Source of the DNA: Flavivirga spongiicola
GTDB taxonomy: Bacteria; Bacteroidota; Bacteroidia; Flavobacteriales; Flavobacteriaceae
Assembly: GCF_030540825.1 (NCBI RefSeq)
Contig: NZ_JAUOEO010000001.1
Coordinates: 1,275,001 to 1,339,000 of the forward strand
Direction of reading: 5' to 3'
Length of the DNA stretch: 64,000 bases
This document shows positions 37,705 through 60,127 of the stretch, piece by piece. The position numbers and the translations under genes are program-made. The notes under the pieces were generated by a model. It was not told where the DNA came from and made no database searches. It saw nothing but the letters and a program-made list of their open reading frames with translations. Position 1 is the stretch's first letter. Each line of letters begins with the position of its first letter.

Positions 37705-37722
37705 TACTTTGTAGCGGGAACT
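37705..37722. other. attL: 18-bp duplicate of the tRNA-fMet 3' end
   Basis: TACTTTGTAGCGGGAACT is identical to 60048-60065. Its last 11 bases are the 3' end of tRNA-fMet on the minus strand; beyond it the sequence no longer forms a tRNA. It marks the tRNA-distal end of the island. Confidence 0.8.
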
Positions 37723-42882: not shown

Positions 42883-42893
42883 AATTTTGTTTT

Positions 42894-45800
42894 CTAAATT
42901 TCTAAAAGTCGTCTTACTACATGATTAAAATTATTTGAAAATTCATCCTTAAAATTATTTGAAGTAAATCTGCTTTCTATTCCATGGAGCGAAATGACCA
43001 CTTCTATTCTGCTAATATTTCTAATAATACTTAGGTCTTTAAGTATAACAATAGTATTTACTGTGCCTGAAGTTGATGAAGAACTGTTTATTGCTGATCT
43101 TGAACTTTGAGTAAAGTTTGGCCCTGATGCTTGATCTAATCGAAAAATAATAGAATCTAATAGACGATTTTCATAGCCAGAAGTGTCATTGAGTTCACTA
43201 TATAGACCGAAGTATATTATGCTTTTTGGTTCCAAAAAATCTGCTTCTATTTGTGCTTCGATTATATCGTTACCTCTAATGTCTGTAGTTCGACCAATAT
43301 TTATTTCAAATTGAAAAAAAGCACTAGCTAAACTAGAATATTGCCTAGAAATTGTCTCTGGAGTCTCTATTTGATATTTATAACGATTAGGAATAACATT
43401 TTCTCTAACGTTCCTGCTCATAAATGAAAATATTCTTAAACCAAAATAATTATAGTATAAAGCAGTTCCATTGTATATGTCCTCTACTGTTAAGGGTTGA
43501 GGATGTGATGAGTGAGATATGGTCTGTTCTGCTTCTCGTATCAATGAAAAGAAGCCTGCTACGAACATTATTCCTGTTCCTATACCTAATACTACCCATC
43601 CAGCTGGTCCAGTAGAAAAAGCCAACATTAGTTCACCAACAATGACAGAACTCGCTCCAAATATATTGAGTCCTGCCAGAAAATCATCAGCTGTGTTAGT
43701 AGTTCTTTGGGCTTCGGTAAGTCCATCTATGGCTCTCCATAAAGTAAGTGTTGCTCCAAAGACCCCTAGAAAACGAACAAAACTAATTGCTCTTCCTCCA
43801 AAAGCTGAAATACGCCACCTTCCCTCTAAAGGGATAACAAATCTTGTTCCTCTATATACTTCAGTTAGTTCTGCGGCAAATTTACCTAAGGTTGCGGCAA
43901 ACTCAAAATGATTTCGCATTCCTCTATCGGGATTTGAATACAATTGAATAGCTTTTGCTACAATATCTATAGTGTTTAAAGCAGCGCCTAATGCACTAAG
44001 TCTTGGAGGAGTCGAGAATCGATTCGCATTGATCCCATCCAAAACAGTATCCGCGGTAGCTGAATTTATTGGGGCATTTTTATAAATCAAAGTATAGTTA
44101 AATTCTCGAAATATTTCCGTTGTGCTTCCTCCAAAACTTGGCCTACTAACTATAGCAGCGGATGTTCTAGTAAACTCAATTCCTAAACTGTCAAAGAGCG
44201 TACTTAAGTTGTTTTCAATTTCTCCTATTGTTGTTAAAATTGAACTAGGATTGCTAGAAGTTCCAATTGATGTAAGAGATTTGATAATATAAACTTCCAA
44301 AAAAGCTTTATATATGTATGAAATTGATTTATGCCATTGTCGACCACGTCTCCAAATAGCTGATAGAGTTGTCCATCTTATAGAATTATTTGGACCAGAA
44401 ATAGAATGTCCTAAACCATCTTGCACAAAATTATTTGCATAAATCCCTATAAGTTCATTGCCATCTGTTGTTCCTTCAAGTGCGAAGAATGCCTCAGCTA
44501 GTAGTTCAACTAATTCAGGATTTGATTTTAAAAGATTCATGAAATATGGCCGCTCAAATAGATTAAGTTTTAATGAATCACCAAGAAGATTAATGTTCCT
44601 ATTTGAGACCCTTTGAAATGAACTAAAGGCCGAACGTACGTCACTTGCTTTTTGTTGACCCATCATTTCCCGAATAGCCTCTTTTTGCTGAAAACTTAGA
44701 CCCCTACTACGAGTCATTTGAAGAAACAGATTATGTAGACCCATAAGATCATTAAGACTAAACCCACTCGTTTCATGTTCTCTATTTATATTTCTTATAA
44801 GTCGTTCCTTTGCTCTTAATAAACGATTAATTGTAATTCGGACCTTTCTTGAGATATCATAGTGAACAAAAAAGGAAATCTCAACATCCCCTTCTATTCC
44901 AGAAGTAGAAGAAGAATTTGGAGAACTAAAATTAATTAATGCTGTTCTCTTACTTGGAATCCACTCATCCCCTTCCTGTGCAACTTGTAGATCCTCGAAT
45001 TTATAATTCATTAGTGTTATTCTCCTAGCTAGACTGGACTCAAAGATACCGTCATCGTTGTATCTTAATCTATAAACAGCTTTTACATTGTCAGGCAATT
45101 TTATTGTAGCAACAATACTGTTCGTTTCTTCCCCTGGGATCACATAGAATATTTCTTTTGGAATTTCAACTATAACAGGTTCTGGAGGGTTACCTTGTGG
45201 TTCGTATGGGATAGATATTCGTAATTTTTGAATACCTTCATAAACATCCAAACGCCTAGAAGTAGATTCTCCTTTAAAATCCTTGGTTTGATGGATGTAA
45301 AAAGGATCCCTATATGCCGCAGTAAGTTGTTCACTATTTCTGATGTTGAATGGCAGACTAGGATGTGATGTGACTAAATTATCATCATACAGACGTTGAT
45401 AAAATTCATTTGTATCAAACCAAAAGAAATCCTTGGATATCCAATTGTCTAGATTAGTCAAGGTTTTATTAAAAACTCCTAGACCTATCTCAATGTTAAT
45501 TCCTGACCCTTTTAGTTGAAATAGAATGTTTTCCTTTTTAACAGGGAGTAAAAAACTTGAATTGTTTCCCCAATTATTATTTACAAATAAGGTTGCGGAA
45601 TCTAATATTAATTCATGAGTGGGGTCGTTAAAAAGCATTGATTCCCAATCTAGCAAATTCCTTCTAGCTTCAGGGATTATCTCAATATTACTACCTTCCA
45701 GATAACTACCTGCCGTGGTCTGCAAAACTGTCTGTATTTCGAAATTATTATTTTGAACGTATTGTTTGAACACATTCGAAACAATTTTAATAGCGGCATC

Positions 45801-46085
45801 GCCATCGGAATTTAATTGCGGAGTAGAAAAATGAAACCCTCTTACAAGGGGTGCAACCCAATTATGATAACTTGGAATAAGACTTGATCGTTCAGGTAAA
45901 AAGAACAGTTTCCATTCAAAACCGCTACCGTTATTATTTGGAAGCTTAAACATAATTATAAATCCATCAGTGGGTGCTATAATGGAGATTGAGTCATTAT
46001 TTCTACTTGAATAATTGTAAAGCCTAATATCGTTTGATATCAATTGAAAGGGATTACTTGCTTGTAAAGGAAATGGAATACTCAT
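42894..46085 (-). CDS. Giant protein with C-terminal pore-like hydrophobic region (1063 aa)
   Basis: No signal peptide. Residues 1-410 are beta-rich; about 415-560 is helical (RKVRITINRLLRAKERLIRN, MGQQKASDVRSAFSSFQRVS). Residues about 755-855 are glycine- and alanine-rich hydrophobic helices separated by a short polar loop (FVRFLGVFGATLTLW, NIFGASSVIVGELMLAF, AGWVVLGIGTGIMFVAGFF). In large soluble proteins such a block is reminiscent of pore-forming effector domains, but this is resemblance, not homology. The last 200 residues are again beta-rich. It starts 3 bases after the 1861-aa gene, so the two are tightly coupled. Function unknown. Confidence 0.8.
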   Translation of the reverse strand: MSIPFPLQASNPFQLISNDIRLYNYSSRNNDSISIIAPTDGFIIMFKLPNNNGSGFEWKLFFLPERSSLIPSYHNWVAPLVRGFHFSTPQLNSDGDAAIKIVSNVFKQYVQNNNFEIQTVLQTTAGSYLEGSNIEIIPEARRNLLDWESMLFNDPTHELILDSATLFVNNNWGNNSSFLLPVKKENILFQLKGSGINIEIGLGVFNKTLTNLDNWISKDFFWFDTNEFYQRLYDDNLVTSHPSLPFNIRNSEQLTAAYRDPFYIHQTKDFKGESTSRRLDVYEGIQKLRISIPYEPQGNPPEPVIVEIPKEIFYVIPGEETNSIVATIKLPDNVKAVYRLRYNDDGIFESSLARRITLMNYKFEDLQVAQEGDEWIPSKRTALINFSSPNSSSTSGIEGDVEISFFVHYDISRKVRITINRLLRAKERLIRNINREHETSGFSLNDLMGLHNLFLQMTRSRGLSFQQKEAIREMMGQQKASDVRSAFSSFQRVSNRNINLLGDSLKLNLFERPYFMNLLKSNPELVELLAEAFFALEGTTDGNELIGIYANNFVQDGLGHSISGPNNSIRWTTLSAIWRRGRQWHKSISYIYKAFLEVYIIKSLTSIGTSSNPSSILTTIGEIENNLSTLFDSLGIEFTRTSAAIVSRPSFGGSTTEIFREFNYTLIYKNAPINSATADTVLDGINANRFSTPPRLSALGAALNTIDIVAKAIQLYSNPDRGMRNHFEFAATLGKFAAELTEVYRGTRFVIPLEGRWRISAFGGRAISFVRFLGVFGATLTLWRAIDGLTEAQRTTNTADDFLAGLNIFGASSVIVGELMLAFSTGPAGWVVLGIGTGIMFVAGFFSLIREAEQTISHSSHPQPLTVEDIYNGTALYYNYFGLRIFSFMSRNVRENVIPNRYKYQIETPETISRQYSSLASAFFQFEINIGRTTDIRGNDIIEAQIEADFLEPKSIIYFGLYSELNDTSGYENRLLDSIIFRLDQASGPNFTQSSRSAINSSSSTSGTVNTIVILKDLSIIRNISRIEVVISLHGIESRFTSNNFKDEFSNNFNHVVRRLLEI

Positions 46086-46088
46086 TTT

Positions 46089-49000
46089 CTACAGTATTTC
46101 TAACGGATTTGAATAAATGTATACATCTTGTTCACTTTTTAATTTATTATTACTTCGAACGTTAACTAAATAAATAATCGAATTATCTTTGTCAACCTTA
46201 TCCTCAAATTGATCACCGATGATAAATCTGCGCCAGTGTATTAAAGTTTTCCATTTAGGATTTCCTTCCGTCCTTTTTTGAATAAAAATTTCAAGATTAC
46301 TTGACTCACCTTCGGCAACTGTTAAAATAATTACATCGATATTGAAAGTATTATTACCTCTTTCTATTACTATTTTTGGTACTTTTGGAGGAACTATTTC
46401 CAATGCGCTAGATTTTTTGATTTCTGAACCGACTGATTTTACATCAAAATAATTAACTCCGAGAATTCGATAATAATAATCCTGTAAACCTGCCAAACCA
46501 GAATTTGTAAAAGGAATCAGTTCATGTTGTTGTACTAAGTGTCGTATTTCATCATTATCACCCTCATATACCACTGCAACCGAAATGCCATTTGCTATTT
46601 TTCTTAGATTTGCTGTAGTTTGTGGAGCACTTGATCCTGTGTAATAATTCAAAGCTTGGTGCTGATTTTCAATTGGGCTGGCTTCCTTGTCAAATTCATC
46701 TAACCGATAAACACCTAAAATTCTTGCGACAGGAAACTCCTCAGGAATATGTATTTTATTATTGAAAGTTTTAATTCTAGGATCAGGAATCCTGTCAACA
46801 ATTCTCGGGTCAAGTTCATTGCTCCACCAGCGTAAATCCTCTAGCTCCTTTTTACTTTCAGCACGGTACAATACATATTCTTTAAAGTCAGGCTCTCTAT
46901 TTAATGACCATTGAAGTGTTACTTGTCTATCTCCTGCTTCTACTTTTGTAAAAACTGGTTTCCTTGGCGGTTTTACAGCTATGGTTATTGCCGCTTCACT
47001 AAGTGGACCCCAAATAGTGCTTTCTGATAAGGCTTCATTCATGGTTTTTAATCGATAGAAATATCGGTTGTTTACAATGCCATTTACCTCATCTATATAT
47101 TTTTTTTCTCTAATTGGCTTTCCGGTAAGTAATTTGAATGCTTTTTCATTACCCATCCGTTTCGCTAGGGTAGTGATTTCTTTACTATCTTCTACTTCGA
47201 TAAGCGATGGGTAAAAGCGATCTGCCCATTTTCGCCATATAGGAGTAACTGATTGCCAATCAGCACTATCGACAACCGTAGGAAATAATTCTGCTAGGGA
47301 AACTTCTTGAGTTTGAAGCCAATCTGTAAAATCTACATCATCATTAAAGATAACTTGCGGTTCCATATTTTTATAGAAACCTTGACGGGTTCTGCGTTGT
47401 TCTAAATCTCTGGTATAGATGTCGCTGTCTGTAGCTCTGAATACTTTATAAAACAAAGTTTCTGATGGAGGAGGGTCACTCCAGTCCACAGTAATTTTTG
47501 ACTTGCCATAGTAGTCGGCTTTGGCTCCTACGGTAACAATTGGCCTAGGAGCCTCTCCTGGTCTTTTTCTGTTAACAGCTACCATGACGGTACTGCGTGA
47601 TAAATCACTTTTTACATCATCTACATCAGCACTTGTAAGAGCAAGATGATATTGCTCCGTCGTTTTTCCGTTAATAAATTGAGGTAATGCATTTAATTCT
47701 CCCTCATAATTAAAACGCCTGCCGATATAAAAACGCAACGGATGTGTGGCAGAAATAATTATTTCTGGCTGTGGTTCATCTTTTTCACCTGGTGTGGTGT
47801 ATAAGACTAATTTCCTATTACTAGTCCACCTATGCCATAGCACATAAAATGAACGCCATTTATTTTGCGGTTTAGATTTATCATAAAAAACAAGAGCACT
47901 AGGCAGGTAATCTTTAGGCTCAGGTTGAACATAAGTGTTGGGTCTTTGAAAATTGGATATGGTTATTTTATACACTTTAGAAAGCGGGAACCAATCTATT
48001 TTCTCTTCATTTATTAATCTTTTTCGCTCAACTATCAAGGGGTCTGAACTACTTTTTAAATCATCTTCCAAAATTGCCTCCATGACTTCCAAGGCAGGTA
48101 CTTGACCCACGGACAAGCTTAGCGGCTCCATATATGGAAGCGGAATTGAATCTATACGTGGTTCAATAGTATCAGCAAGGCTTCTATGTGCATTTGAGCC
48201 CTCAGGAATACTGATACGGAGTATATCCCCATCTTTTGGAGTCACCAAAGGTTCGGATGCGTATTTGACTTTAAATTCGGGTTCATCGCCCGTAGTATGA
48301 CTTTGTATTTTAAATTTATGCGGGCCTATCAGACAATTTTGTCCCTCCAATTCATTTGCCTCAAAATTGAGACGGTTGTTCTCAATCTTTATTTTAAACT
48401 CTTTGGACTCAAAACTTCGTGCAGGAGGTAGAACTTCTATTGGGCTGGATAATTCATTTTGAATACCTATGGATTGATATAAATTAAACGTGCTAACTTC
48501 TTTAAAGAATAATTGCTGAATACCTGTCCAACCCCATGTCAATTCATAAAAGAAATCTAATGGAATGGAAACGAAATCGCCTGTTTTGGGTTGTAATTGT
48601 TCAAAGGGAACAGCTTTAATATTGAATTTAAAGAATGACGTTGAGCCTTGCTGAGCAGCATCACCAATTTCAAAAGATTGTTCTACGATTCGATTTACCG
48701 TCTCCATTATTATTGGTGGCAGGAGAGGATTGCTAGTGTTTTTCTTTGGAACTTCGTAACTGATTGTTCTTTTGATGGTAAAGTCATAACCAATTATGTT
48801 ATCTTCTAAAATACGACGATATGGAATATTGGTAACCACAGAGTACCCTATTTTTATGGAATTGTCATTGTCATCCAAAACGTCATCGCCATTTACATCT
48901 TTCTTAATCCAGTCTTCAACTGTAGTTATCTCTCCTGTTATAGCTTTAAATTTAGCATGTAGGTTAACTGGTGGGTTATAAACGGGTATAGCATTCGTTT

Positions 49001-51674
49001 TTATTTTTTTAAGGAAACCATGTGTACTTATTCTTCCAAATAAATCAATGCTTCTAGCTCCATAGTGGTAATTGTTATTTTTTAAAAATCTATCGATTAA
49101 TTGTATACTGCCCATTTTTTGATGCCATTCATCAATGGTCAATGCCTCTCTCCAAAATTGAATATTACTTATTAAACCATTAAAAGGATACTTGATATTA
49201 GTGGAACCTGTTGGTAAAATTTCTGAACCAATGGCAATAGCCATATCATTTTGTGTAATAGGTCCCAAGGAAGCCCTATGGCTACTATCCAACTTTCCAT
49301 TTATGAATAACTTTAAGGTGCTTCCATCATAGCTTACTCCTAGGTGGCTCCATTGATTTTCTTTTATTTTACCTATAGAATCAAAGTAACTGTTATTCAG
49401 CCAAAACCTCAAATGAAACTGATTACCAGATTTAGCTAAGCCTAGCCAAAAACCATTTTGATAATCATTTCCTAGTAAGGTGGGAAAGGGTTCAACCATT
49501 ATATCATTCGGCCTAGCCCATACAAAAATTGAAAACCTTGAAGACAAGGCCTTCATAGGATTTGTTTTATTTATAATTATTTGTTCTGCTCCATCGTACG
49601 TTAAGTATGTTTTTTGATCATAAAATATCAATTGAGCCAAACCTTGTTGTTGAGGAAGATAAACAGCTCCCTTTTTTAATAGATGTTTACTTTCAGAGGG
49701 ATGAATAACCTGTTGCCATATACTAATTTCTGACATCTCTCCAATAAATGTAGAACTTAAGTTCCTTGAGCTAATAGCAACATCAGCACCTATGAACACA
49801 TCATTTCTAGGAATGCCTACCTTACCGAGGTCAGCCTCGACCGGATCATCAAAATTTAAAAAATGAAAACCACCATAACGAAAAACAACTTGGTTGCCGT
49901 CATAGGCAACAGATAGTTCTAATGTATGATTCGTGGGGATTAAAAAATTACCTTCAACTAAGTTGCCATTGATCCATAAGCGTGTTTTATAACGACCATC
50001 TGGTTCTTTTTTAATCCCCCACCAGAAACCATTCCTCTTACTATTTCCAATTAGTGTAGCTGTATTGGGGCATAAACTATTTATTTTAACTTTGGCTTGT
50101 AAGGTGAAATTATCACCTAATACCTTTAGATGATTTTGACTTTCCAAAACCAACGCTTGGTTCCCATTTAATTTTAGATTATAAGGTGAGGTTTGATTTT
50201 CCGAATCTGATTTCACAAATTTAGGATTGCCAAGTTTAATTGCGTTTATACCATCTTTAATGTTAGATAAATGACCATTTAAGGGCCAATAGCCTAATAA
50301 GCTCGGCAAACTTAGATCTGAGATATTATCCCTATAGATTGCAGGAGAACTAATATTTTGTAATTGTGTTGGTAACACAGTACGACTATTTGAAGAAGTT
50401 GTTCTACTAAATTGAATTCGGACAGGATTGTTAAGTTGGTCTAAGTCTTTCAGTACCTTAATAGTATCAGATTCCTTTGGTATTAAAACCTCGCTAATCT
50501 TTGGAGTAGTAATTAAAGTGCTTAACTTTATTTGAGAAATTTTATTATTCACTTCTCCATTATTATTTAGAATCGCAGGCATTTGCTCATTAACTAGCTT
50601 ACTAATAATTGGTTTTGGTAAAGTTTTGGTAAAAGAAGGATCCAATATTATAATGTTGTGGACATTACCTATAGCGCCAAACCTTCTTCGATAAGTAATC
50701 TTGTAAATTCGAAAAGTTTCGCCAGGTATTTTCTTAAAATTTAATACTTGAAATGGAGAACTTGGTCTTGTAATTCGAAGGTGTTTACTGTCGTCGTCGT
50801 ATGATAAGCGTTCTCCAAGAGTTGTTAATTGCCAATTACCTGAAGAATTGCCTAATTCATACTCGATGGTCACTTCCTCGACAGGATATTCGAATTCAAT
50901 CAAAAATCCTGGATTTAAGTTGCCTTTAACCAACAGGTGAGACCTATACAAATCATTATTTTCATTTAAAGAGACTCCTAAAGTTCTTAGATTAGGAACT
51001 ACTTTTAATCCTTGAAATTGTAACGGAATGACACCTTGGCGTATATCGTAATTTTCAAAGGTGGTAGTTAATGAAGCGAACATCATATTTTTCCAATGCC
51101 CTTGAACTAGATATAAATATTTATTTAAGGGATCAGCTTCAGTATCTATTATGTATAACCCCAACATTCTGGCGATATATGGATCAACACTGGCAGCCAT
51201 TAACACATCCATTACCCGAAGACCACCCTTCAATCCATTTTCTGCAATATCCTCACTATCCAAAAAGGCATTATACATTTCTTCAGAATTTCCTGAATTT
51301 GTCAAACGCTCAATAACATCTAGTAAATCATCAGCAACTTGATCATATTTTGCTTTTATAGCTTGGGAAACTAAAACCTCATTTATTCTGGAAAGTGCCT
51401 CTCTTTTATTTTTGGGTAAGTTGATTTTTATTTCCCACTCCAGTAAAGAAGTTGGAGTAGTACCTGAAGTCAAATGTGTTGAATCAAGTCTATTTGAAGT
51501 AACTTTAATATGATAACGTTGTATGGTAAATCCATTTTTAGGAAAACCCATCTCAGGATTAAAAGTCCAGCGTAGGTGACTACCAGATACTGCCTTTTTT
51601 CCATCGAAAAGCTCTGTGGAAGAATTTAGACTTAAAGCTACTAAGCCTAAATCTGGTTTTTGAAGATTTAGCAT
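46089..51674 (-). CDS. Giant multidomain protein with two LamG-like and FnIII-like domains (1861 aa)
   Basis: No signal peptide (MLNLQKPDLGLVALSLNSST). Two LamG/concanavalin-like domains at about 460-665 (LLGYWPLNGHLSN, NGFWWGIKKEPDGRYKTRLW) and 700-850 (FSIFVWARPNDIM, NQWSHLGVSYDGSTLKLFIN). A dockerin/EF-hand-like calcium loop DVNGDDVLDDND sits near residue 928. FnIII-like domains follow at about 1375-1420 and 1570-1615 (AGDRQVTLQWSLNREPDFKE). Adhesion-type domains in a protein without an export signal recall tail-fibre, injection-system or non-classically exported proteins. It is the first gene of the operon; its upstream region ends at the right 151-bp element. Function unknown. Confidence 0.82.
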   Translation of the reverse strand: MLNLQKPDLGLVALSLNSSTELFDGKKAVSGSHLRWTFNPEMGFPKNGFTIQRYHIKVTSNRLDSTHLTSGTTPTSLLEWEIKINLPKNKREALSRINEVLVSQAIKAKYDQVADDLLDVIERLTNSGNSEEMYNAFLDSEDIAENGLKGGLRVMDVLMAASVDPYIARMLGLYIIDTEADPLNKYLYLVQGHWKNMMFASLTTTFENYDIRQGVIPLQFQGLKVVPNLRTLGVSLNENNDLYRSHLLVKGNLNPGFLIEFEYPVEEVTIEYELGNSSGNWQLTTLGERLSYDDDSKHLRITRPSSPFQVLNFKKIPGETFRIYKITYRRRFGAIGNVHNIIILDPSFTKTLPKPIISKLVNEQMPAILNNNGEVNNKISQIKLSTLITTPKISEVLIPKESDTIKVLKDLDQLNNPVRIQFSRTTSSNSRTVLPTQLQNISSPAIYRDNISDLSLPSLLGYWPLNGHLSNIKDGINAIKLGNPKFVKSDSENQTSPYNLKLNGNQALVLESQNHLKVLGDNFTLQAKVKINSLCPNTATLIGNSKRNGFWWGIKKEPDGRYKTRLWINGNLVEGNFLIPTNHTLELSVAYDGNQVVFRYGGFHFLNFDDPVEADLGKVGIPRNDVFIGADVAISSRNLSSTFIGEMSEISIWQQVIHPSESKHLLKKGAVYLPQQQGLAQLIFYDQKTYLTYDGAEQIIINKTNPMKALSSRFSIFVWARPNDIMVEPFPTLLGNDYQNGFWLGLAKSGNQFHLRFWLNNSYFDSIGKIKENQWSHLGVSYDGSTLKLFINGKLDSSHRASLGPITQNDMAIAIGSEILPTGSTNIKYPFNGLISNIQFWREALTIDEWHQKMGSIQLIDRFLKNNNYHYGARSIDLFGRISTHGFLKKIKTNAIPVYNPPVNLHAKFKAITGEITTVEDWIKKDVNGDDVLDDNDNSIKIGYSVVTNIPYRRILEDNIIGYDFTIKRTISYEVPKKNTSNPLLPPIIMETVNRIVEQSFEIGDAAQQGSTSFFKFNIKAVPFEQLQPKTGDFVSIPLDFFYELTWGWTGIQQLFFKEVSTFNLYQSIGIQNELSSPIEVLPPARSFESKEFKIKIENNRLNFEANELEGQNCLIGPHKFKIQSHTTGDEPEFKVKYASEPLVTPKDGDILRISIPEGSNAHRSLADTIEPRIDSIPLPYMEPLSLSVGQVPALEVMEAILEDDLKSSSDPLIVERKRLINEEKIDWFPLSKVYKITISNFQRPNTYVQPEPKDYLPSALVFYDKSKPQNKWRSFYVLWHRWTSNRKLVLYTTPGEKDEPQPEIIISATHPLRFYIGRRFNYEGELNALPQFINGKTTEQYHLALTSADVDDVKSDLSRSTVMVAVNRKRPGEAPRPIVTVGAKADYYGKSKITVDWSDPPPSETLFYKVFRATDSDIYTRDLEQRRTRQGFYKNMEPQVIFNDDVDFTDWLQTQEVSLAELFPTVVDSADWQSVTPIWRKWADRFYPSLIEVEDSKEITTLAKRMGNEKAFKLLTGKPIREKKYIDEVNGIVNNRYFYRLKTMNEALSESTIWGPLSEAAITIAVKPPRKPVFTKVEAGDRQVTLQWSLNREPDFKEYVLYRAESKKELEDLRWWSNELDPRIVDRIPDPRIKTFNNKIHIPEEFPVARILGVYRLDEFDKEASPIENQHQALNYYTGSSAPQTTANLRKIANGISVAVVYEGDNDEIRHLVQQHELIPFTNSGLAGLQDYYYRILGVNYFDVKSVGSEIKKSSALEIVPPKVPKIVIERGNNTFNIDVIILTVAEGESSNLEIFIQKRTEGNPKWKTLIHWRRFIIGDQFEDKVDKDNSIIYLVNVRSNNKLKSEQDVYIYSNPLEIL

Positions 51675-52878: not shown

Positions 52879-53346
52879 CTAATTTACTTTTTGAAAGACA
52901 TATACTTCCTGTTCTGTTGAATTAGAATCTGTATCTGCGTCTATTTTAAGTGTGGTTGCTGTTAACTCAGTTATTAGGTAATCTCCGATAGTTCCGTTAT
53001 CAAATTGACCATTTATTGTAATCCTCAAGATATCATCATTGACAATCTGCCAATTACCTGTATTATCCCATTCTAATTCACAGTCTGTTACTGTGTAATA
53101 TCCCGTTTGAGCAAAATTTCTAGTGTTTGAAAATGTAGTTCTTCCAGTCTGTTCACAGGCACTATAATTATCTGTTATAGTTGTGCCATTATTATCTACA
53201 AATTCGGCTTGTATAGGCTTCCAAACACCTTCTATTTTGGAATTAGCATTGTTATCATCATCTGAAGGACTATCAGAGCTGCATCCAGTTGATAATAGAG
53301 TTCCCATAAGGATAGCTAGAATCGGTTTTAAAAATTGATCTTTCAT
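52879..53346 (-). CDS. Lipocalin-like lipoprotein
   Basis: A 155-aa lipoprotein (leader MKDQFLKPILAILMGTLLST, then GCSS with the lipid-modified Cys at residue 22, followed by a Ser/Asp-rich linker). The body starts with the lipocalin-like 'IEGVWKPIQAEFVDNNG' and continues with about eight short strands (NWQIVNDDILRITINGQF, LITELTATTLKIDAD), as in Bacteroidota lipocalin_4-type proteins. Two Cys residues (ACEQ, DCEL) may pair. It probably binds a small hydrophobic molecule or serves as an envelope accessory. Divergent from the small HTH gene. Confidence 0.75.
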   Translation of the reverse strand: MKDQFLKPILAILMGTLLSTGCSSDSPSDDDNNANSKIEGVWKPIQAEFVDNNGTTITDNYSACEQTGRTTFSNTRNFAQTGYYTVTDCELEWDNTGNWQIVNDDILRITINGQFDNGTIGDYLITELTATTLKIDADTDSNSTEQEVYVFQKVN

Positions 53347-53462
53347 TTTTATTTACTTTAGGTTAATAGATAGACTTATTGTTTGTCAAATATAATTAAA
53401 ATGACAGAATTGCGTCCTTTAGTCCGCATTATTTTCTATAACAACTTATTCCTTTGTTGTAT

Positions 53463-53684
53463 ATGGTCGATATCAACAAAAGAATATGTAATTACATTGC
53501 AAGTGAATGGATAGCTATAAGTAAGTCCAATAGGAGTTTTGCTATTGAGCATAACATAGATGAAAAGACTGTTAGAAAGATTCTTCAAAAAGATGGTTAT
53601 AGGATACCTGTGAAAACTTTATACAAGATTTGTGAAGCGAAGGAATTGAATATGGAAACCTTTTTTAAGCTTATACAATTATAA
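53463..53684 (+). CDS. Small HTH DNA-binding protein (XRE-like)
   Basis: A 73-aa protein, with the ATG at 53463 preferred over an in-frame TTG at 53454. It is almost entirely one helix-turn-helix domain: ISKSNRSFAIEHNIDEKTVR and a C-terminal VKTLYKICEAKELNMETFF that matches the last helices of XRE/Cro-type regulators. It is the only plus-strand gene in the island and is convergent with the NACHT gene (15 bases apart). It may regulate island genes; no operator was identified. Confidence 0.75.
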   Translation: MVDINKRICNYIASEWIAISKSNRSFAIEHNIDEKTVRKILQKDGYRIPVKTLYKICEAKELNMETFFKLIQL

Positions 53685-53699
53685 TATTAAGCTATCAAC

Positions 53700-56600
53700 T
53701 TATCTACCAAACGATTCACCATCCAAACTATCAATAAGTACAGAGAAATTATGAAAATACTCACTAATCAATAGATAATCATCTTTGATTTCTTCTAATA
53801 TTTCCAAATGCATATCTTCAGGTGAATTTGCCTTAAACTTGAACCTATCTTTTAGTTTTACTGGCACAATTTGCTTAATACTATTGACACTTATAAAATC
53901 TTTGTATTCTTGCCATTTTAATTTTAGGTCCTTCTGGAAAAAAGTAGGCAGGTCACTAACCTCTTTTGCTTCAAACTCCAGAACACTCATTTGATAAATC
54001 TCCGATCCTTCTCTAATGAATAAACTAGAGGAGTCTTCTCTATAATAATCTTGTGTAGCTAAATCGTAAAACAAAGCTTCTAATTTTTTGAATCCTTCCT
54101 CTCCATTTTCATACTTTTCATAAATACTTAAAGACACTAAAAAAGTATGAATTGTATCATGTAGAAATCTATACTGCCTAGTTTTAACGTCTTCAAATCT
54201 CTCATTTGCCACTGACACGAGTAATCCAGAATTTATTCCAAATTCAACTTTTTCTTTATTTGAATCGTTAATATAAATGTTTCTTTTTCCCTTGTTAAAA
54301 TATGTTTCAAAACTTAGTGAAATCAAGTTTGAATCAATTACGCCATTCTCCGTTTTCGTCATAGACTCTACAAAATCTTTATAAAGGGTATTAATGCTGT
54401 AAGACTTACTAATATTGCTTTTATAGGACTTATTGACCAGATTTACGGCAAGTCTTACCAAAATCGGAAGGTAATCACCAGCCTCATCTTTACAGATATC
54501 CAATAACTCTCTATTTAGCCTTTTGTCTGGATTTAAATAGCTATTTACAAAAATCTCAACATTATTATCGTTCAATCTTTGGGGCTCGATTAAAATATAA
54601 TTCTTTGAGGTTTTAAATTCAGTTTCAATTTTCTTATTTGGTCTAATGGTGGCTATAACACAAGTATTTCGCCCAATATCGTTACTTGCTTTTACAAAGG
54701 TTTCAAAAACACCTTTTGGTATTCCTGCTTCAGACAACCCATCAAAGAAAAGTATAAATGAGCCACTGGAAAGTTCTTTTTTAAATGAATCTTCAACAAC
54801 TAAGCTTCCCAATGCATTCTTAATAATTGATTCCACACTCTCATTTTCTAGTTGTTCGCCACTTACATATATTGGAATTGGCAATGCAGTATCATTATTG
54901 TATTTAATTATATATGCTTTGACAAAAGCCCGTAATAACGCTGACTTACCTTGACCTCCAGGGGCTTTAATTAGTATATGTGGTGCTTCCCTATGTTTAG
55001 CATTAGTTGTTAATTCTAGCAGCTTATCTACAGGAGCAGACTCAATTGAAGCGTTTCCATTAATTCTAAATCTTGCCGGAATAGGTACATAAGACTCATC
55101 CTTTATGTCATTTACACTATTAACTTCCTTATCAAAATTAATGCTCTCAATATGTTCCTTAAAATAACGCTTTTTAAATGCTGGAATAGTTTTTAAAAAT
55201 GAGTTTAATAAATCAAAAGGTGTTACACTTTGTAATTGCCTGTACATATATGGTGAGATAAAACCAGAAAAAACAGACGCTACCAACAAAGTAATTGACC
55301 CTAAAATGAAAGTAGTAGAATCGAAATGTTTAGAAAACTCTTCAATGAGGCCATCTCCATAAGATGTAAAAAAACCAGAGGTTACAAATACAATTAAAGG
55401 CGAATATCGCTTAACTATGCTAGGTAGAAGATTTAATTTAATTATTAGGATTGACAATAATAATAACCCTAGTAAAAGCAATATAGTTTTTCCTTCGTTA
55501 GCCTTAAAGAAAGGTTTTGTAAACATTTTATCTTTAATACTCACAAAAGCTTTAGATTCTTTTGTGCTCAAGGTTAGATAGAAATCATAGGCTTTGTCTG
55601 ATTCAATTTTCTCATCATTATAAAAGGCATAATTAACCTTAAAAAGGTTGTCCCCAATTTTAAATGCCTCAAGTGAATCTGAATTTCCACCGATCTTATC
55701 TCCATTTCTATAAATACCATATTTAAATTCTATTGGATTCGGAAGGCTATCAAAATTGTTAATACTAAATTCAAAACTTTTTTCATTGATATTATTTATT
55801 TCAGTGTCTAATTGATTCAATGAATATAAACTCCAAGTATTATTGACTTTGTTATGAATATTAATGATTCCAAAATCCATCGTTTCATTTATATAGTAAT
55901 TTTTAATATTTGAATCTTCTCCGTATTTATCAGCGTCATTTATAAAGTTAGAATACAAATAATTGTTTTTTAAGGTGTTATTAATGCCAAAACTGATTTT
56001 ATTTAATGTATCACCATTAAAATTAAAAAAAGAGAATCCATTAATATTATTCAGGCTTAAAACTGAATCGCTGATTTTATCAAAGGCTATAGAATCGTAA
56101 TAATATCCACCTTCCGTGGACGAAATAGAATCTTTAGGGTAAATGTCATGCTGAATTTTAAATATTGATTTATCTTTTTTATTGATGATATAAGTGTCAT
56201 TATTAGAATATGTAGAAACTGCTTTTGTTGGTCCAATTGGAAAAAGAGCTTCAAAATCCTCTTTTTTATGCAATACTGTATCATCAATTAACTCTATTTC
56301 TCCATTATCTAAAGAATAAAGTTTGTTATGGGAATATTGATTATCCCCACCCTTAACAATTCCAGATTTAGAATTTGTTGCTATCCATAATTCGCTTGGA
56401 CTACTTCCTCTGTATATTCTATTAATATTTAGGCCCGATTCTATACTTTTAGAATTAATAATGGTATCATTTTCAAATAAAAAAAAGTGCAGTTTATCAT
56501 TAAAAGCTTTGTTAGAAACAATAGTATCTGCTTGTTCTGAAACCCAAAAAGACTCCCTTTTTTTATCAGTTAAAACTTGAATATTTTTATTTGCAAATAA

Positions 56601-57389
56601 ATTTTCAAATTTTCCATTTGGATATAATATATAAAGACCTTGATTTTCAAATCCATGGGTGAATACTAAGCAATTACCCACTATTTGAAATTCAAAATGC
56701 TGTCCAAGGGTTAAAATATTATTAGAGATAGTATTTCTAATATGAGAGCCATTAGTGCTTAAATAGGTGAAATTTTCGGAATCAAAAATCCATATAGATT
56801 GAGATTTTCCTAAAAATATATCTGAAACATAATTATAGCCTTTCAAGGAAATTGTATCTAATACTTTGTTAGTGCTAAATAAAATGGCTTCTTGATTATT
56901 TGTGTTTTGGTTAAAACCATGCGTCACACCATACCCATACTTATTTGAATACTTTTGCTTGAAGAGATTATTAAAATATGAAGTTTTAATGGAAAATTGC
57001 TTATTCCCAATGCTATCAATACTCGTAATTGATTTTGTATTTAATCTCTCTATGTTATAGAATTCCTCTTGCAATAAAAAAGCATACCCACGCTCAAACG
57101 GGAATAACTCGTAAGCATCAAAATCTTCAATTGAATCAATTGAGATGATTTTTTTATAATCATCATCTCTTCCGAAAGATAATTCTAACTTTTTATCAGT
57201 TGGATTAAAACTACTTAACCAAAATTGCCCGTATTGTTTCGAATATACCTCATCAAACTGTTTAAGTTCTTTAGTGAGATATCCTGACGATTCTATTTTG
57301 AATTTATTTTCTTTCTTGGAACAACTAGAAAATAAAAGAACAGTAACTAGTAAGAATAATGAAACAATATCTTTTGATAAGTCCTTCAT
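53700..57389 (-). CDS. Transmembrane sensor-NACHT NTPase (1229 aa)
   Basis: The start is the ATG at 57389, one base overlapping the upstream stop (TGATG). An N-terminal leader ends in FSSC, a possible lipobox. Residues about 25-560 are beta-rich and repeat-like, as in propeller sensors, followed by a region ending KDKMFTKPFF that resembles a Y_Y_Y/Reg_prop end. Three membrane segments follow at about 638-655 (ILLLLGLLLLSILIIKL), 662-677 and 693-712. The cytoplasmic part is NACHT-like: Walker A APGGQGKSALL near 811, Walker B FILFFDGLSE near 885, and VIATIRPNK near 913, then a helical C-terminus. This replaces the histidine kinase of a hybrid two-component sensor by a STAND-type NTPase. A defence or envelope-stress role is inference. 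Confidence 0.85.
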   Translation of the reverse strand: MKDLSKDIVSLFLLVTVLLFSSCSKKENKFKIESSGYLTKELKQFDEVYSKQYGQFWLSSFNPTDKKLELSFGRDDDYKKIISIDSIEDFDAYELFPFERGYAFLLQEEFYNIERLNTKSITSIDSIGNKQFSIKTSYFNNLFKQKYSNKYGYGVTHGFNQNTNNQEAILFSTNKVLDTISLKGYNYVSDIFLGKSQSIWIFDSENFTYLSTNGSHIRNTISNNILTLGQHFEFQIVGNCLVFTHGFENQGLYILYPNGKFENLFANKNIQVLTDKKRESFWVSEQADTIVSNKAFNDKLHFFLFENDTIINSKSIESGLNINRIYRGSSPSELWIATNSKSGIVKGGDNQYSHNKLYSLDNGEIELIDDTVLHKKEDFEALFPIGPTKAVSTYSNNDTYIINKKDKSIFKIQHDIYPKDSISSTEGGYYYDSIAFDKISDSVLSLNNINGFSFFNFNGDTLNKISFGINNTLKNNYLYSNFINDADKYGEDSNIKNYYINETMDFGIINIHNKVNNTWSLYSLNQLDTEINNINEKSFEFSINNFDSLPNPIEFKYGIYRNGDKIGGNSDSLEAFKIGDNLFKVNYAFYNDEKIESDKAYDFYLTLSTKESKAFVSIKDKMFTKPFFKANEGKTILLLLGLLLLSILIIKLNLLPSIVKRYSPLIVFVTSGFFTSYGDGLIEEFSKHFDSTTFILGSITLLVASVFSGFISPYMYRQLQSVTPFDLLNSFLKTIPAFKKRYFKEHIESINFDKEVNSVNDIKDESYVPIPARFRINGNASIESAPVDKLLELTTNAKHREAPHILIKAPGGQGKSALLRAFVKAYIIKYNNDTALPIPIYVSGEQLENESVESIIKNALGSLVVEDSFKKELSSGSFILFFDGLSEAGIPKGVFETFVKASNDIGRNTCVIATIRPNKKIETEFKTSKNYILIEPQRLNDNNVEIFVNSYLNPDKRLNRELLDICKDEAGDYLPILVRLAVNLVNKSYKSNISKSYSINTLYKDFVESMTKTENGVIDSNLISLSFETYFNKGKRNIYINDSNKEKVEFGINSGLLVSVANERFEDVKTRQYRFLHDTIHTFLVSLSIYEKYENGEEGFKKLEALFYDLATQDYYREDSSSLFIREGSEIYQMSVLEFEAKEVSDLPTFFQKDLKLKWQEYKDFISVNSIKQIVPVKLKDRFKFKANSPEDMHLEILEEIKDDYLLISEYFHNFSVLIDSLDGESFGR

Positions 57390-58285
57390 CAAAAATTGAT
57401 ATTTAAATTAAGAGAGGTTACATCCACCTGAACAAATTTTGCCCCAGGATCATAACCGTTTTTATAATTAAGTCCTATACTTACATGTTCTTGTTTACCT
57501 GGATAATAGTTTAGTGAAACATCAAAAATTGGTAAGTCATTCTTAACTAAATTATCGTTACCAAATACATTTCTAAATGTTCCGTTGAAAATAGTTTGCA
57601 AGGTTCTAGGCGACCACCAATATTCCAGAAACAATCTTATGAAATAAGTGGAAAACACTTCACGTTGTCCATCTATTATTAGGTTAGGAACTTCGTAATA
57701 TTCAAAACCAATATAAGGATAATACATTCCTCTATAATCTGAATCTTTATTATTAAATCTCCAAGGATATCCAGGTGCATTTTTAGATAAGCTAAAAAAA
57801 GACATCTGTGCTACATACTTAATTTCATTTACAGACTCCATTAAATTTCGCTTAAAAACAAAATTTGATAATAGGTAAGGTTTTACATTCCAATCTTTAC
57901 CAAAATAATATTCACCATTTAATCCTATGCTTAAATTATCCTTTTTAGCATCATCATTAGAGGATTTGTGCCATTCTACTACTGGGAATAAAGTGAGTAT
58001 TGAACCACTATTCTTGAGTGGTTCAAATTCAATCAATTTTACGGCGATATCAACGTTAATGAAGTCATTTCTATTTTTGTGGTTTTCAAATAGACTAAGC
58101 GTAGCTGGTTTTTTTTCATTCTTTGAACCATCGAATGTTTTTCTAATGCTTACATTCTCTTTAAACCAACTCTTTTTAGTACTAGCGGTATTACTGCTAT
58201 TTTGAGAAAAAGCTAAACAAATAATAAAGTTGAAAAGAAGGAGTAGGAGTATTCGTCTAGAAGAATGATAAGAAATATTATCCAT
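57389..58285 (-). CDS. Predicted outer-membrane beta-barrel protein
   Basis: A 298-aa protein with a signal peptide (LLLLLFNFIICLAFSQ) and alternating amphipathic strands ending in Phe (SLNLNINF), the usual sign of BAM-inserted barrels; about 10-12 strands can be counted (for example DFINVDIAVKLIEF, LSIGLNGEYYFGKDW, YFIRLFLEYWWSP, HVSIGLNYKNGYD). No enzymatic motif is visible. The start overlaps the 90-aa gene by 8 bases, and its stop overlaps the NACHT start, so the three proteins should be made together and perhaps assemble across the envelope. Confidence 0.75.
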   Translation of the reverse strand: MDNISYHSSRRILLLLLFNFIICLAFSQNSSNTASTKKSWFKENVSIRKTFDGSKNEKKPATLSLFENHKNRNDFINVDIAVKLIEFEPLKNSGSILTLFPVVEWHKSSNDDAKKDNLSIGLNGEYYFGKDWNVKPYLLSNFVFKRNLMESVNEIKYVAQMSFFSLSKNAPGYPWRFNNKDSDYRGMYYPYIGFEYYEVPNLIIDGQREVFSTYFIRLFLEYWWSPRTLQTIFNGTFRNVFGNDNLVKNDLPIFDVSLNYYPGKQEHVSIGLNYKNGYDPGAKFVQVDVTSLNLNINF

Positions 58286-58550
58286 TAATCTTTTTGTTAA
58301 TTAGTTTACATAAATTTAATACAGTTTTAGCCTTTTTAACTTCTTTAGCTAAAACGGTTTTTGAACTATCATGCTTTTTCACATAACCTCTTAAGGATAA
58401 AGACATGAAGTTGATTTTAGGTGTATCCATTTTTAATGGATGCTTGGTCAGCTCATATGATTCTTTGATTTTTGATGCTGGAAAATTTGCATAATCTCCT
58501 ATTCTTTCTTTAACATAATTGTACACTTTTGTTTTGGACGGTTTACTCAT
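58278..58550 (-). CDS. Small basic protein (90 aa), first gene of the NACHT operon
   Basis: A soluble, Lys-rich, predicted helical protein (VYNYVKERIGDYANFPASKI, INFMSLSLRGYVKKHDSSKT, AKTVLNLCKLINKKING). The arrangement of helices and the 'TVLNLCKLI' end faintly recall acyl-carrier-like folds, but the phosphopantetheine site motif DSL is absent. Small carrier-like or death-fold-like adaptors are frequent beside STAND NTPases. No family is recognised. Confidence 0.6.
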   Translation of the reverse strand: MSKPSKTKVYNYVKERIGDYANFPASKIKESYELTKHPLKMDTPKINFMSLSLRGYVKKHDSSKTVLAKEVKKAKTVLNLCKLINKKING

Positions 58551-58685: not shown

Positions 58686-59891
58686 CTAATTGTTAAGTTT
58701 TTTGTTTAAAAGTTTCGTTAAGTCACTTACACTCTTTTGAACAACCTTAGCATAGTGACGTTGTGTAATTTGCATTTTGGAATGTCCAAGTAATTCAGAA
58801 ACAATTTCCATAGGCACATCATTGTAAAGCAATACAGTAGTTGCAAAGGTCTTTCTTGCTATATGATGAGTTAATCTCTTATTTATCCCTACAATAACTG
58901 CAATTTCCTTTAAATAAGAATTAAATTTTTGATTTGTAATTACTGGCAATAGACGATCATTTTGACAATACTTCATTAGAACCTCATTAGCCTTATCCAA
59001 TAGAGGAACAGAAACGGTTGTATTAGTCTTTTTTCTATACATTTTTATCCAGGTATTACCATCAAATCCTTTTATTAGATGCTCTCGGGATAAATTACTC
59101 ATTTCAGCATAAGCCAACCCTGTATAACAACAAAACACAAACATATCTCTTACTTGTGACAGCCTACTTTGAGCAAATTGATAATCTTCTAAATCTTTCA
59201 ATTCTTCTTTAGTCAAGAATACAACCCTAATTTCATAACGCTTAGGTTTATATAATATAAAAGGGTCTTTCTCCAACCAACCTTCTGCTAATGCCAACTT
59301 TACAATCTTACGTACTCTCTGTATGCTTTTATTAATAGTTATCTGCTTATGCCCAAACTCAGATTTTAAATAGAAATCAAAATCTCTAAGAAAATTCATT
59401 TTAATAGATTCTAGTAAAATATCATTTTTATTATACTGATGTTTAATGAAATTAGTTGTATGTTTTTTAGCTTCAATAAACTTCCTGTAAGTAGAGTTTG
59501 TGTATTCTATACCCACTAACTTATTCATGCGTTCATTATGCAATTTAAACACCTCTAAAAGCGTCTTATGAGTCTTTATATTCTCTCCTTTATACTTCAA
59601 ATAAACATCATCTACATCAAACGTTTCATTGCTAACTTGTAGAAATAAAAAAGCCTCATTAATCTTTTGACTAATAAGGCTTAATTGTGTATTGATGTAA
59701 TTATTATCTGGATTTGGTGGTTTTGCTTTCTGTTGTTTACTGCTCCAATAATCTGGATTTAAGAATAGACCTAATGAGAATTCTTTACGTTTTTTTAAAT
59801 AGGTAATCCTACATCTAATAGGACACTTTCCCTTTTTATTTACTTTATGTTTATGCAAAAGAAAAAGTATAGTCATTTTATTGATATTCAT
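58686..59891 (-). CDS. Island tyrosine recombinase (IntDOT-like)
   Basis: A 401-aa integrase. The N-terminus has an Arm-type DNA-binding domain (VNKKGKCPIRCRITYLKKRK), then a core-binding SAM-like domain (about 105-205), then the catalytic domain with HHIARKTFAT (HxxR, about 340), LLGHSKM and the nucleophile Tyr in QRHYAKV (about 378). The first catalytic Arg is missing: the segment reads TGLAYAEMSNLS where typical enzymes have TGLR. This substitution is known in Bacteroidota integrases related to IntDOT. It lies 164 bases from tRNA-fMet and is the obvious enzyme for integration and excision of the island. Confidence 0.93.
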   Translation of the reverse strand: MNINKMTILFLLHKHKVNKKGKCPIRCRITYLKKRKEFSLGLFLNPDYWSSKQQKAKPPNPDNNYINTQLSLISQKINEAFLFLQVSNETFDVDDVYLKYKGENIKTHKTLLEVFKLHNERMNKLVGIEYTNSTYRKFIEAKKHTTNFIKHQYNKNDILLESIKMNFLRDFDFYLKSEFGHKQITINKSIQRVRKIVKLALAEGWLEKDPFILYKPKRYEIRVVFLTKEELKDLEDYQFAQSRLSQVRDMFVFCCYTGLAYAEMSNLSREHLIKGFDGNTWIKMYRKKTNTTVSVPLLDKANEVLMKYCQNDRLLPVITNQKFNSYLKEIAVIVGINKRLTHHIARKTFATTVLLYNDVPMEIVSELLGHSKMQITQRHYAKVVQKSVSDLTKLLNKKLNN

Positions 59892-60022: not shown

Positions 60023-60048
60023 AAGAGTAACCATTTCTGATTACTCTT
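60023..60048 (-). terminator. tRNA-fMet terminator supplied by the island
   Basis: On the minus strand an 11-bp stem (AAGAGTAATCA/TGGTTACTCTT, one G-U pair in RNA, 4-base loop) is followed by a run of Ts. It directly follows the tRNA 3' end and has taken over the role of the original terminator at 37675-37704. Confidence 0.65.
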
Positions 60049-60054
60049 ACTTTG

Positions 60055-60127
<73 letters not shown>

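What the first reader, a model, noticed from the sequence alone, without database searches (positions are those of the whole stretch)
53700..58550. Envelope-spanning NACHT operon: small protein, outer-membrane barrel, and periplasmic sensor fused to a NACHT NTPase
The three genes overlap (8 bases, then TGATG), so they should be made together. The last product joins a periplasmic beta-rich sensor region, three membrane helices and a cytoplasmic NACHT-type NTPase (APGGQGKS, FILFFDGLSE, VIATIRP), in the place a histidine kinase holds in hybrid two-component sensors. Its operon partner is a predicted outer-membrane barrel. Known bacterial NACHT/STAND defence proteins are mostly cytoplasmic; a version wired to the cell surface could sense phage adsorption, envelope damage or a ligand. 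It sits on an integrated island, a usual place for defence genes.
Basis: partly seen in the sequence, partly recalled or inferred. Interest (0 to 1): 0.92.

Follow-up and report, generated by a model that had tools for sequence, protein, structure and literature searches.

The report
Envelope-spanning NACHT alarm operon
Three overlapping genes on a tRNA-linked genomic island of a bacterium encode a small protein with a predicted carrier-protein fold, an exported beta-rich protein that is likely in the outer membrane, and a predicted membrane protein carrying an immune-type NACHT switch; together they would form a surface-wired alarm, which would matter because bacterial NACHT immune proteins are described with their sensor at the other end.

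Summary
The genes, overlaps and NACHT motifs are there. The last product has a lipoprotein-type N-terminus, about 610 predicted periplasmic residues, two strong and one weak membrane helix, and a NACHT-type domain (profile probability 92%; controls 0.1% or less). The genes lie on a 22.3-kb island bounded by an 18-bp direct repeat of the tRNA-Met 3' end. No relative of the NACHT protein itself was found. The barrel (poor model) and a propeller-type sensor are unproven. Best reading: a modular, envelope-coupled conflict system whose window version fires a NACHT switch; the defence role is inferred from neighbours only. New variant of a known kind.

The parts
58278..58550 (-). 90-aa small protein, no signal peptide seen; predicted acyl-carrier-protein fold without a conserved phosphopantetheine serine
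57389..58285 (-). 298-aa exported beta-rich protein (signal-peptide-like N-terminus, C-terminal Phe), putative outer-membrane barrel; E-[WYF]-H-[KR]-[SN]-[ST] motif at residues 104-109
53700..57389 (-). 1229-aa lipoprotein-signal / periplasmic / 3-TM / NACHT protein
57321..57389 (-). lipoprotein-type signal peptide, residues 1-23 (LLFSSC)
   Evidence: sequence; lipobox reading is recalled knowledge
55485..57320 (-). predicted periplasmic beta-rich region, residues 24-635
   Evidence: topology; propeller test weak
55257..55484 (-). transmembrane segment, residues 636-711 (two strong helices, one weak)
54090..54983 (-). NACHT-type NTPase domain, residues 803-1100
   Evidence: hhalign; Pfam, below cut-off
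54942..54965 (-). Walker A APGGQGKS, residues 809-816
54729..54758 (-). Walker B FILFFDGLSE, residues 878-887
54639..54659 (-). VIATIRP (sensor-1-like), residues 911-917
58686..59891 (-). tyrosine integrase of the island
   Evidence: Phage_integrase 55.5 bits, cut-off 27.1
60054..60127 (-). tRNA-Met, integration site
60048..60065 (.). 18-bp direct repeat, island end at the tRNA 3' end
37705..37722 (.). 18-bp direct repeat, other end of the island

Best explanation
This three-gene cluster likely encodes an envelope-coupled conflict (defence) module in which a predicted outer-membrane beta protein and a predicted periplasmic sensor region would pass a signal through membrane helices to a cytoplasmic NACHT-type NTPase. 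Shown: the gene overlaps, the domain order signal peptide / about 610 residues / membrane helices / NACHT, the island ends, and the recurrence of the small protein plus barrel-relative pair in front of different third genes. Inferred: the exported protein sits in the outer membrane as receptor or bait; the lipid-anchored N-terminal half of the NACHT protein contacts it across the periplasm; on envelope insult (phage adsorption or injection, a contact toxin, or damage) the cytoplasmic NACHT domain binds ATP and oligomerises; the small carrier-fold protein acts as a cytosolic adaptor or brake on the membrane partner, not as an acyl carrier; and clustering of the membrane helices, the only candidate effector part, would leak the inner membrane and stop the cell. 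Relatives would keep the pair as the conserved sensing part and change the output protein.
Against: No relative of the NACHT protein found, so its own gene order cannot be tested for conservation. Two of seven pairs (Aquimarina) have no third gene. In L012 and L018 the small gene is assigned by position and weak similarity only (hhalign to the core small-protein profile 7.9% and 2.5%; L012 to L018 BLAST E 0.002). The Pfam NACHT score is below the curated cut-off, and the PF05729 search did not ring on this gene in its own genome. PADLOC finds nothing in the window's three genes. Barrel model poor. Propeller signal not significant. The carrier-fold model has pLDDT 54.7; hhalign against local acyl carrier proteins was not significant (0.2% for the six-sequence and 1.2% for the eight-sequence profile, where one of ten column shuffles reached 2.6%); L018's small protein and profile A2 hit no acyl carrier protein. 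No functional data.
Confidence: 0.4

Rival explanations
1. Envelope lipid maintenance module: the carrier-fold protein, the exported barrel-like protein with an E-x-H-x-[SN] site and partners such as patatin would sense or remodel membrane lipids, with the NACHT protein as its regulator, not a defence system.
For: Patatin third gene in L010; E-[WYF]-H-[KR]-[SN]-[ST] in 8 of 8 barrel relatives, reminiscent of the H-x-S of OMPLA and PagL (recalled); carrier fold; lipoprotein-like gene behind the pair in L018.
Against: No conserved carrier serine in the registers examined; NACHT, SLATT and Avs1/Lamassu-like MBL plus protease neighbours are conflict-type; patchy occurrence and island location.
Confidence: 0.2
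2. Island-maintenance or inter-bacterial competition device: the module punishes cells that lose the island or meet a competitor, rather than phage.
For: It lies next to the island's integrase, and 0 of 11 other genomes of the genus searched carry the NACHT gene.
Against: No toxin or antitoxin family in the three genes. Weak: no tRNA in the stretches fetched around the relatives' pairs; a crude integrase-motif scan of L004, L010, L011, L012 and L018 flagged one ORF, in L011, which has no integrase family in Pfam.
Confidence: 0.12
3. Chance neighbours: the NACHT gene is independent island cargo that landed behind a separate small protein plus barrel pair.
For: Pairs without a third gene in L004 and L005; no relative of the NACHT protein beside another pair.
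Against: One-base overlap TGATG; 5 of 7 pairs are followed within 58 bases by co-directional genes, one of them a membrane NTPase.
Confidence: 0.17
4. A nutrient or ligand receptor in the style of hybrid two-component sensors, with the NACHT domain as a signalling switch for metabolism or gene expression.
For: Blade-like stretches around residues 245-340 align with the host's own propeller sensors (probability 4%); a small HTH gene lies beyond the operon's end (HTH_26, 20.2 bits, just under the cut-off of 22).
Against: Propeller match not significant; no kinase or utilisation family among the ten window proteins scanned.
Confidence: 0.08

Closest known systems
Bacterial NACHT (bNACHT) antiphage proteins
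   Same: NACHT-type STAND NTPase with Walker A, DG-x-x-E Walker B and sensor-like motif; like clade 14 bNACHTs it has a short C-terminal part and no recognised effector domain (clade 14 from PMC12169576, passages)
   Different: bNACHTs are described as C-terminal sensor, central NACHT, N-terminal effector (same passages); here a region of about 610 residues lies N-terminal, predicted beyond the membrane, and no C-terminal repeat family was recognised
Avs1 / AVAST type 1 and Lamassu
   Same: L011 carries an MBL protein matching LmuA and Avs1a and an S8 protease beside the pair
   Different: NCBIfam Avs1a score 131.5 is far below its cut-off of 420; no STAND gene recognised in L011; no MBL or protease among the ten window proteins scanned
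DGR-diversified STAND sensors of multicellular bacteria
   Same: Some NACHT targets are predicted to lie at or across the membrane (PMC10907252, passages)
   Different: C-type-lectin variable domains and retroelements; no barrel or carrier-fold partner mentioned in the passages seen
Acyl carrier protein family
   Same: Predicted four-helix carrier fold; best structural matches are carrier proteins
   Different: No conserved phosphopantetheine serine
SLATT-domain membrane effectors
   Same: SLATT_2 protein upstream of the L012 pair
   Different: No SLATT family among the ten window proteins scanned

Membership tests
NACHT STAND NTPase | Profile match over the domain, with P-loop and DG-x-x-E Walker B | tested here: met
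   hhalign 92.2% with controls; motifs; Pfam alone stays below its cut-off and did not ring in the own genome
NACHT STAND NTPase | NACHT three-dimensional fold | not tested
bNACHT antiphage protein | C-terminal sensor, central NACHT, N-terminal effector | tested here: inconclusive
   Large region N-terminal of the membrane helices, about 130 residues after the NACHT, no effector or repeat family found; but clade 14 bNACHTs also have short C-termini and no recognised effector
bNACHT antiphage protein | Protection against phage | not testable with these tools
   needs an experiment
Avs1 (AVAST type 1) | MBL, protease and STAND genes together | tested here: not met
   No MBL or protease among the ten window proteins scanned; L011 has MBL and S8 but no STAND recognised
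Acyl carrier protein | Carrier-protein fold | tested here: inconclusive
Acyl carrier protein | Phosphopantetheine serine | tested here: not met
   No conserved serine in the registers examined; TN in place of DS in L012
Outer-membrane beta-barrel | Transmembrane barrel fold | tested here: inconclusive
   pLDDT 36; no significant fold or sequence match; amphipathicity z 0.8 window, 0.1 L004, 1.8 L010, 1.3 L012, 2.7-2.9 L011, L017, L018; intended positive control 1.6, three non-barrel controls -0.4 to -1.2
Hybrid two-component sensor periplasmic region | Reg_prop propeller plus Y_Y_Y | tested here: inconclusive
   Probability 4%, E 0.011; 6 shuffles and 5 other proteins 0.1-0.2%; no Pfam hit
Known antiphage systems in PADLOC | Model match for window genes | tested here: not met
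   0 of 4 proteins given, integrase included

The most novel reading that the evidence does not exclude
A new class of bacterial immune chassis: an outer-membrane receptor paired with a repurposed carrier-fold adaptor forms a fixed envelope-sensing front end onto which evolution plugs different killers (NACHT switch, membrane NTPase with SLATT, patatin lipase, MBL plus protease), so that the cell would answer an attack at its surface before the genome enters.
Probability: 0.3. Interest if true: 0.88.

Novelty: new variant of a known kind. Interest (0 to 1): 0.68.

Why it matters
If right, it gives bacterial NACHT proteins a route to sense the cell surface, extends the 'conserved sensor, swapped effector' logic of conflict systems to the outer membrane, and shows a carrier-protein fold serving as an immune adaptor. 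It also supplies a marker pair (small protein plus barrel relative) by which further such operons can be found and tested. In the paper searches made no listed paper described this combination; the listings were capped, and most subscription papers are not in that library.

Tried and rejected
The genome-contig scan with the NACHT protein found nothing; with the barrel it found L004 and L005. G733 (RND pump, L019) was dropped as a false barrel hit; G758 (L068, E 5.7e-4 over 81 positions) was not examined. L017's barrel relative has no small gene beside it. L018's barrel match is weak (E 7.8e-5, positions 17-115). Plasmids, phages and viral contigs gave no relatives of the NACHT protein; the window's barrel gave none in plasmids and viral contigs (phages not searched with it); the barrels of L010, L011 and L012 and L012's NTPase gave none in plasmids, nor profile A4 in viral contigs. 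Dropped: a Rho-like PDB hit at the P-loop (E 5e-4), read as a shared P-loop; Glyco_trans_4_5 (below cut-off). L012's NTPase had no PDB sequence match. Of 29 PDB matches of L012's small protein up to E 10, most were porins and beta-lactamases at E 0.14 or worse, read as chance. The first carrier-protein comparison held two misframed rows and was redone; neither was significant. The barrel fold search is noise from a poor model. dN/dS of the small gene between L004 and L005 rests on dS 0.019 and says nothing.
Full report
WHAT IS THERE. On the minus strand lie three genes: 58278-58550 (90 aa), 57389-58285 (298 aa) and 53700-57389 (1229 aa). The first two overlap by 8 bases; the second stops and the third starts in TGATG, sharing one base. 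Behind the operon a small HTH-like gene (53454-53684, HTH_26 just under its cut-off) runs the other way. Upstream is a tyrosine integrase, then tRNA-Met. The 18 bases TACTTTGTAGCGGGAACT at 60048-60065, of which 12 lie in the tRNA 3' end, recur exactly and in the same direction at 37705-37722; the chance expectation from base composition is 6e-7. The operon therefore sits at the integrase end of a 22.3-kb integrated island. Of 149 relatives searched, own genome included, only the own genome carries the NACHT gene and only it carries the barrel gene.

THE NACHT PROTEIN. Residues 1-23 look like a lipoprotein signal (LLFSSC; the lipobox is recalled knowledge). Strong hydrophobic segments lie at 636-654 and 693-711, with a weaker one between. 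Loop charges (2 positive and none negative after the first, 3 negative and 1 positive before the third, 4 positive and 1 negative after the third) put residues 24-635 outside and the C-terminal half inside. Pfam NACHT is below its cut-off (E 0.2 whole protein, 0.027 for the C-terminal half, over 8-164 of 167 positions), and PF05729 did not ring on this gene in its own genome. A profile of four NACHT proteins from two genomes of the genus (L021, L022, L045, L046) does align with residues 803-1100 at 92.2% (E 1e-6), inside the range of four leave-one-out positives (89.8-98.4%), while 5 shuffles and 6 other P-loop proteins stay at or below 0.1%. I call it NACHT-type. The N-terminal half has short stretches like propeller blades of the host's own hybrid sensors, but the match is 4%: open. 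No relative of this protein was found: 1 of 149 relatives, 1 of 397 family genomes and 1 of 296 phylum genomes, each time the own genome (the samples overlap, and searches used the C-terminal 540 residues); none in plasmids, phages or viral contigs, in genome contigs by pattern or in the genomes of L004 and L005 (which had no positive control).

THE PAIR. The barrel gene led to relatives: two Aquimarina loci, three genomes beyond the own among 397 of the family, and, by a wider profile, G524 and G516 plus one false hit, G733, among 296 of the phylum. A later search of 198 relatives of G280 gave G280 itself and one weak hit not examined. Of the eight barrel loci examined (window, L004, L005, L010, L011, L012, L017, L018), seven have a small gene directly upstream, from 8 bases of overlap to 11 bases of gap. 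In five of these (window, L004, L005, L010, L011) the small proteins are clearly related (42-52% identity to the window's); in L012 and L018 the assignment rests on position and weak similarity (30% and 22% in alignment; hhalign 7.9% and 2.5%; L012 to L018 BLAST E 0.002). What follows differs. Window: NACHT protein. L012: a 561-aa protein with membrane helices and the motifs TAPAGFGKS, VIMVDDLDE and LSRPE, only weakly NACHT-like (17%), with a SLATT_2 gene 134 bases upstream of the pair. L010: a 157-aa membrane protein and a patatin with two membrane helices. L011: three large proteins without family, and directly upstream an MBL protein matching LmuA and Avs1a (NCBIfam Avs1a below its cut-off) and an S8 protease, all on one strand. 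L018: a 666-aa protein with a lipoprotein-like start (by eye). L004 and L005: nothing co-directional. PADLOC rang on 2 of the 10 relatives' proteins given (eight neighbours, two pair members): strongly on the L011 MBL, weakly on L012's small protein. Between L004 and L005 the barrel shows dN/dS 0.08, so it is kept even there.

THE BARREL. It looks exported and beta-rich, and ends in Phe; E-[WYF]-H-[KR]-[SN]-[ST] is present in 8 of 8. The structure model is poor and nothing matches significantly. Amphipathicity, on 7 of the 8, is weak in the window (z 0.8) and L004 (0.1), intermediate in L010 and L012 (1.8, 1.3), and better in L011, L017 and L018 (2.7-2.9); the intended positive control gave 1.6, three non-barrel controls -0.4 to -1.2. 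Outer-membrane placement is likely, not shown.

MECHANISM. I take the pair as the conserved sensing part and the third gene as a swapped output; in the window the output is a NACHT switch held at the inner membrane with its own periplasmic half. Activation by envelope attack, oligomerisation and inner-membrane leakage are inferred. Lipid maintenance is the strongest rival.

LITERATURE. bNACHT proteins are described as C-terminal sensor, central NACHT and N-terminal effector; clade 14 has a short C-terminal domain and no readily discernible effector (PMC12169576, passages). Membrane-placed NACHT sensors were proposed in diversity-generating loci (PMC10907252, passages). In two large surveys of STAND conflict systems the word counts for 'outer membrane' and 'acyl carrier' are 0 in the held main text (PMC7159879, PMC8195603, passages and counts only). 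The listings (20 of 1,473 papers; 15 of 132,076 in 73; 15 of 64 in 75; 12 of 16 in 95; 4 of 5 in 96; 0 in 97; 10 of 10 in 101; 10 of 258 in 102) showed no paper on this combination.

Noticed in passing
window 38047-51674 (-): Three giant tandem genes (1611, 1063 and 1861 aa) fill most of the same island; DUF6603 (48.2 bits) in the first, Laminin_G_3 (84.1 bits) in the third, nothing in the second.
   Followed up: partly
window 52879-53346 (-): Lipocalin_4-type protein beyond the end of the operon on the same strand (33.1 bits, cut-off 22.4).
   Followed up: no
L011 3065-12536 (-): Run of eight same-strand genes: small membrane protein, S8 protease, MBL, small carrier-fold protein, barrel relative, three unknown proteins; looks like an undescribed conflict operon.
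   Followed up: partly
L012 7961-8335 (-) and L018 8332-8727 (-): These small proteins carry an extra N-terminal segment of about 45-55 residues before the carrier-like part; L012's also matches DUF7599 at E 9e-5, below the cut-off.
   Followed up: no
L004 7702-7983 and L005 1636-1911: The small gene has dS 0.019 while the adjacent barrel has dS 0.489 between the two Aquimarina loci; possible recombination.
   Followed up: no
L004 6432-7322 (+) and L005 76-1189 (+): Transposase-like ORFs, judged by eye only, lie upstream of both Aquimarina pairs.
   Followed up: no
G007 (same genus): 58 carrier-protein domain matches, many in open frames of thousands of residues: likely a large nonribosomal peptide or polyketide repertoire.
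   Followed up: no
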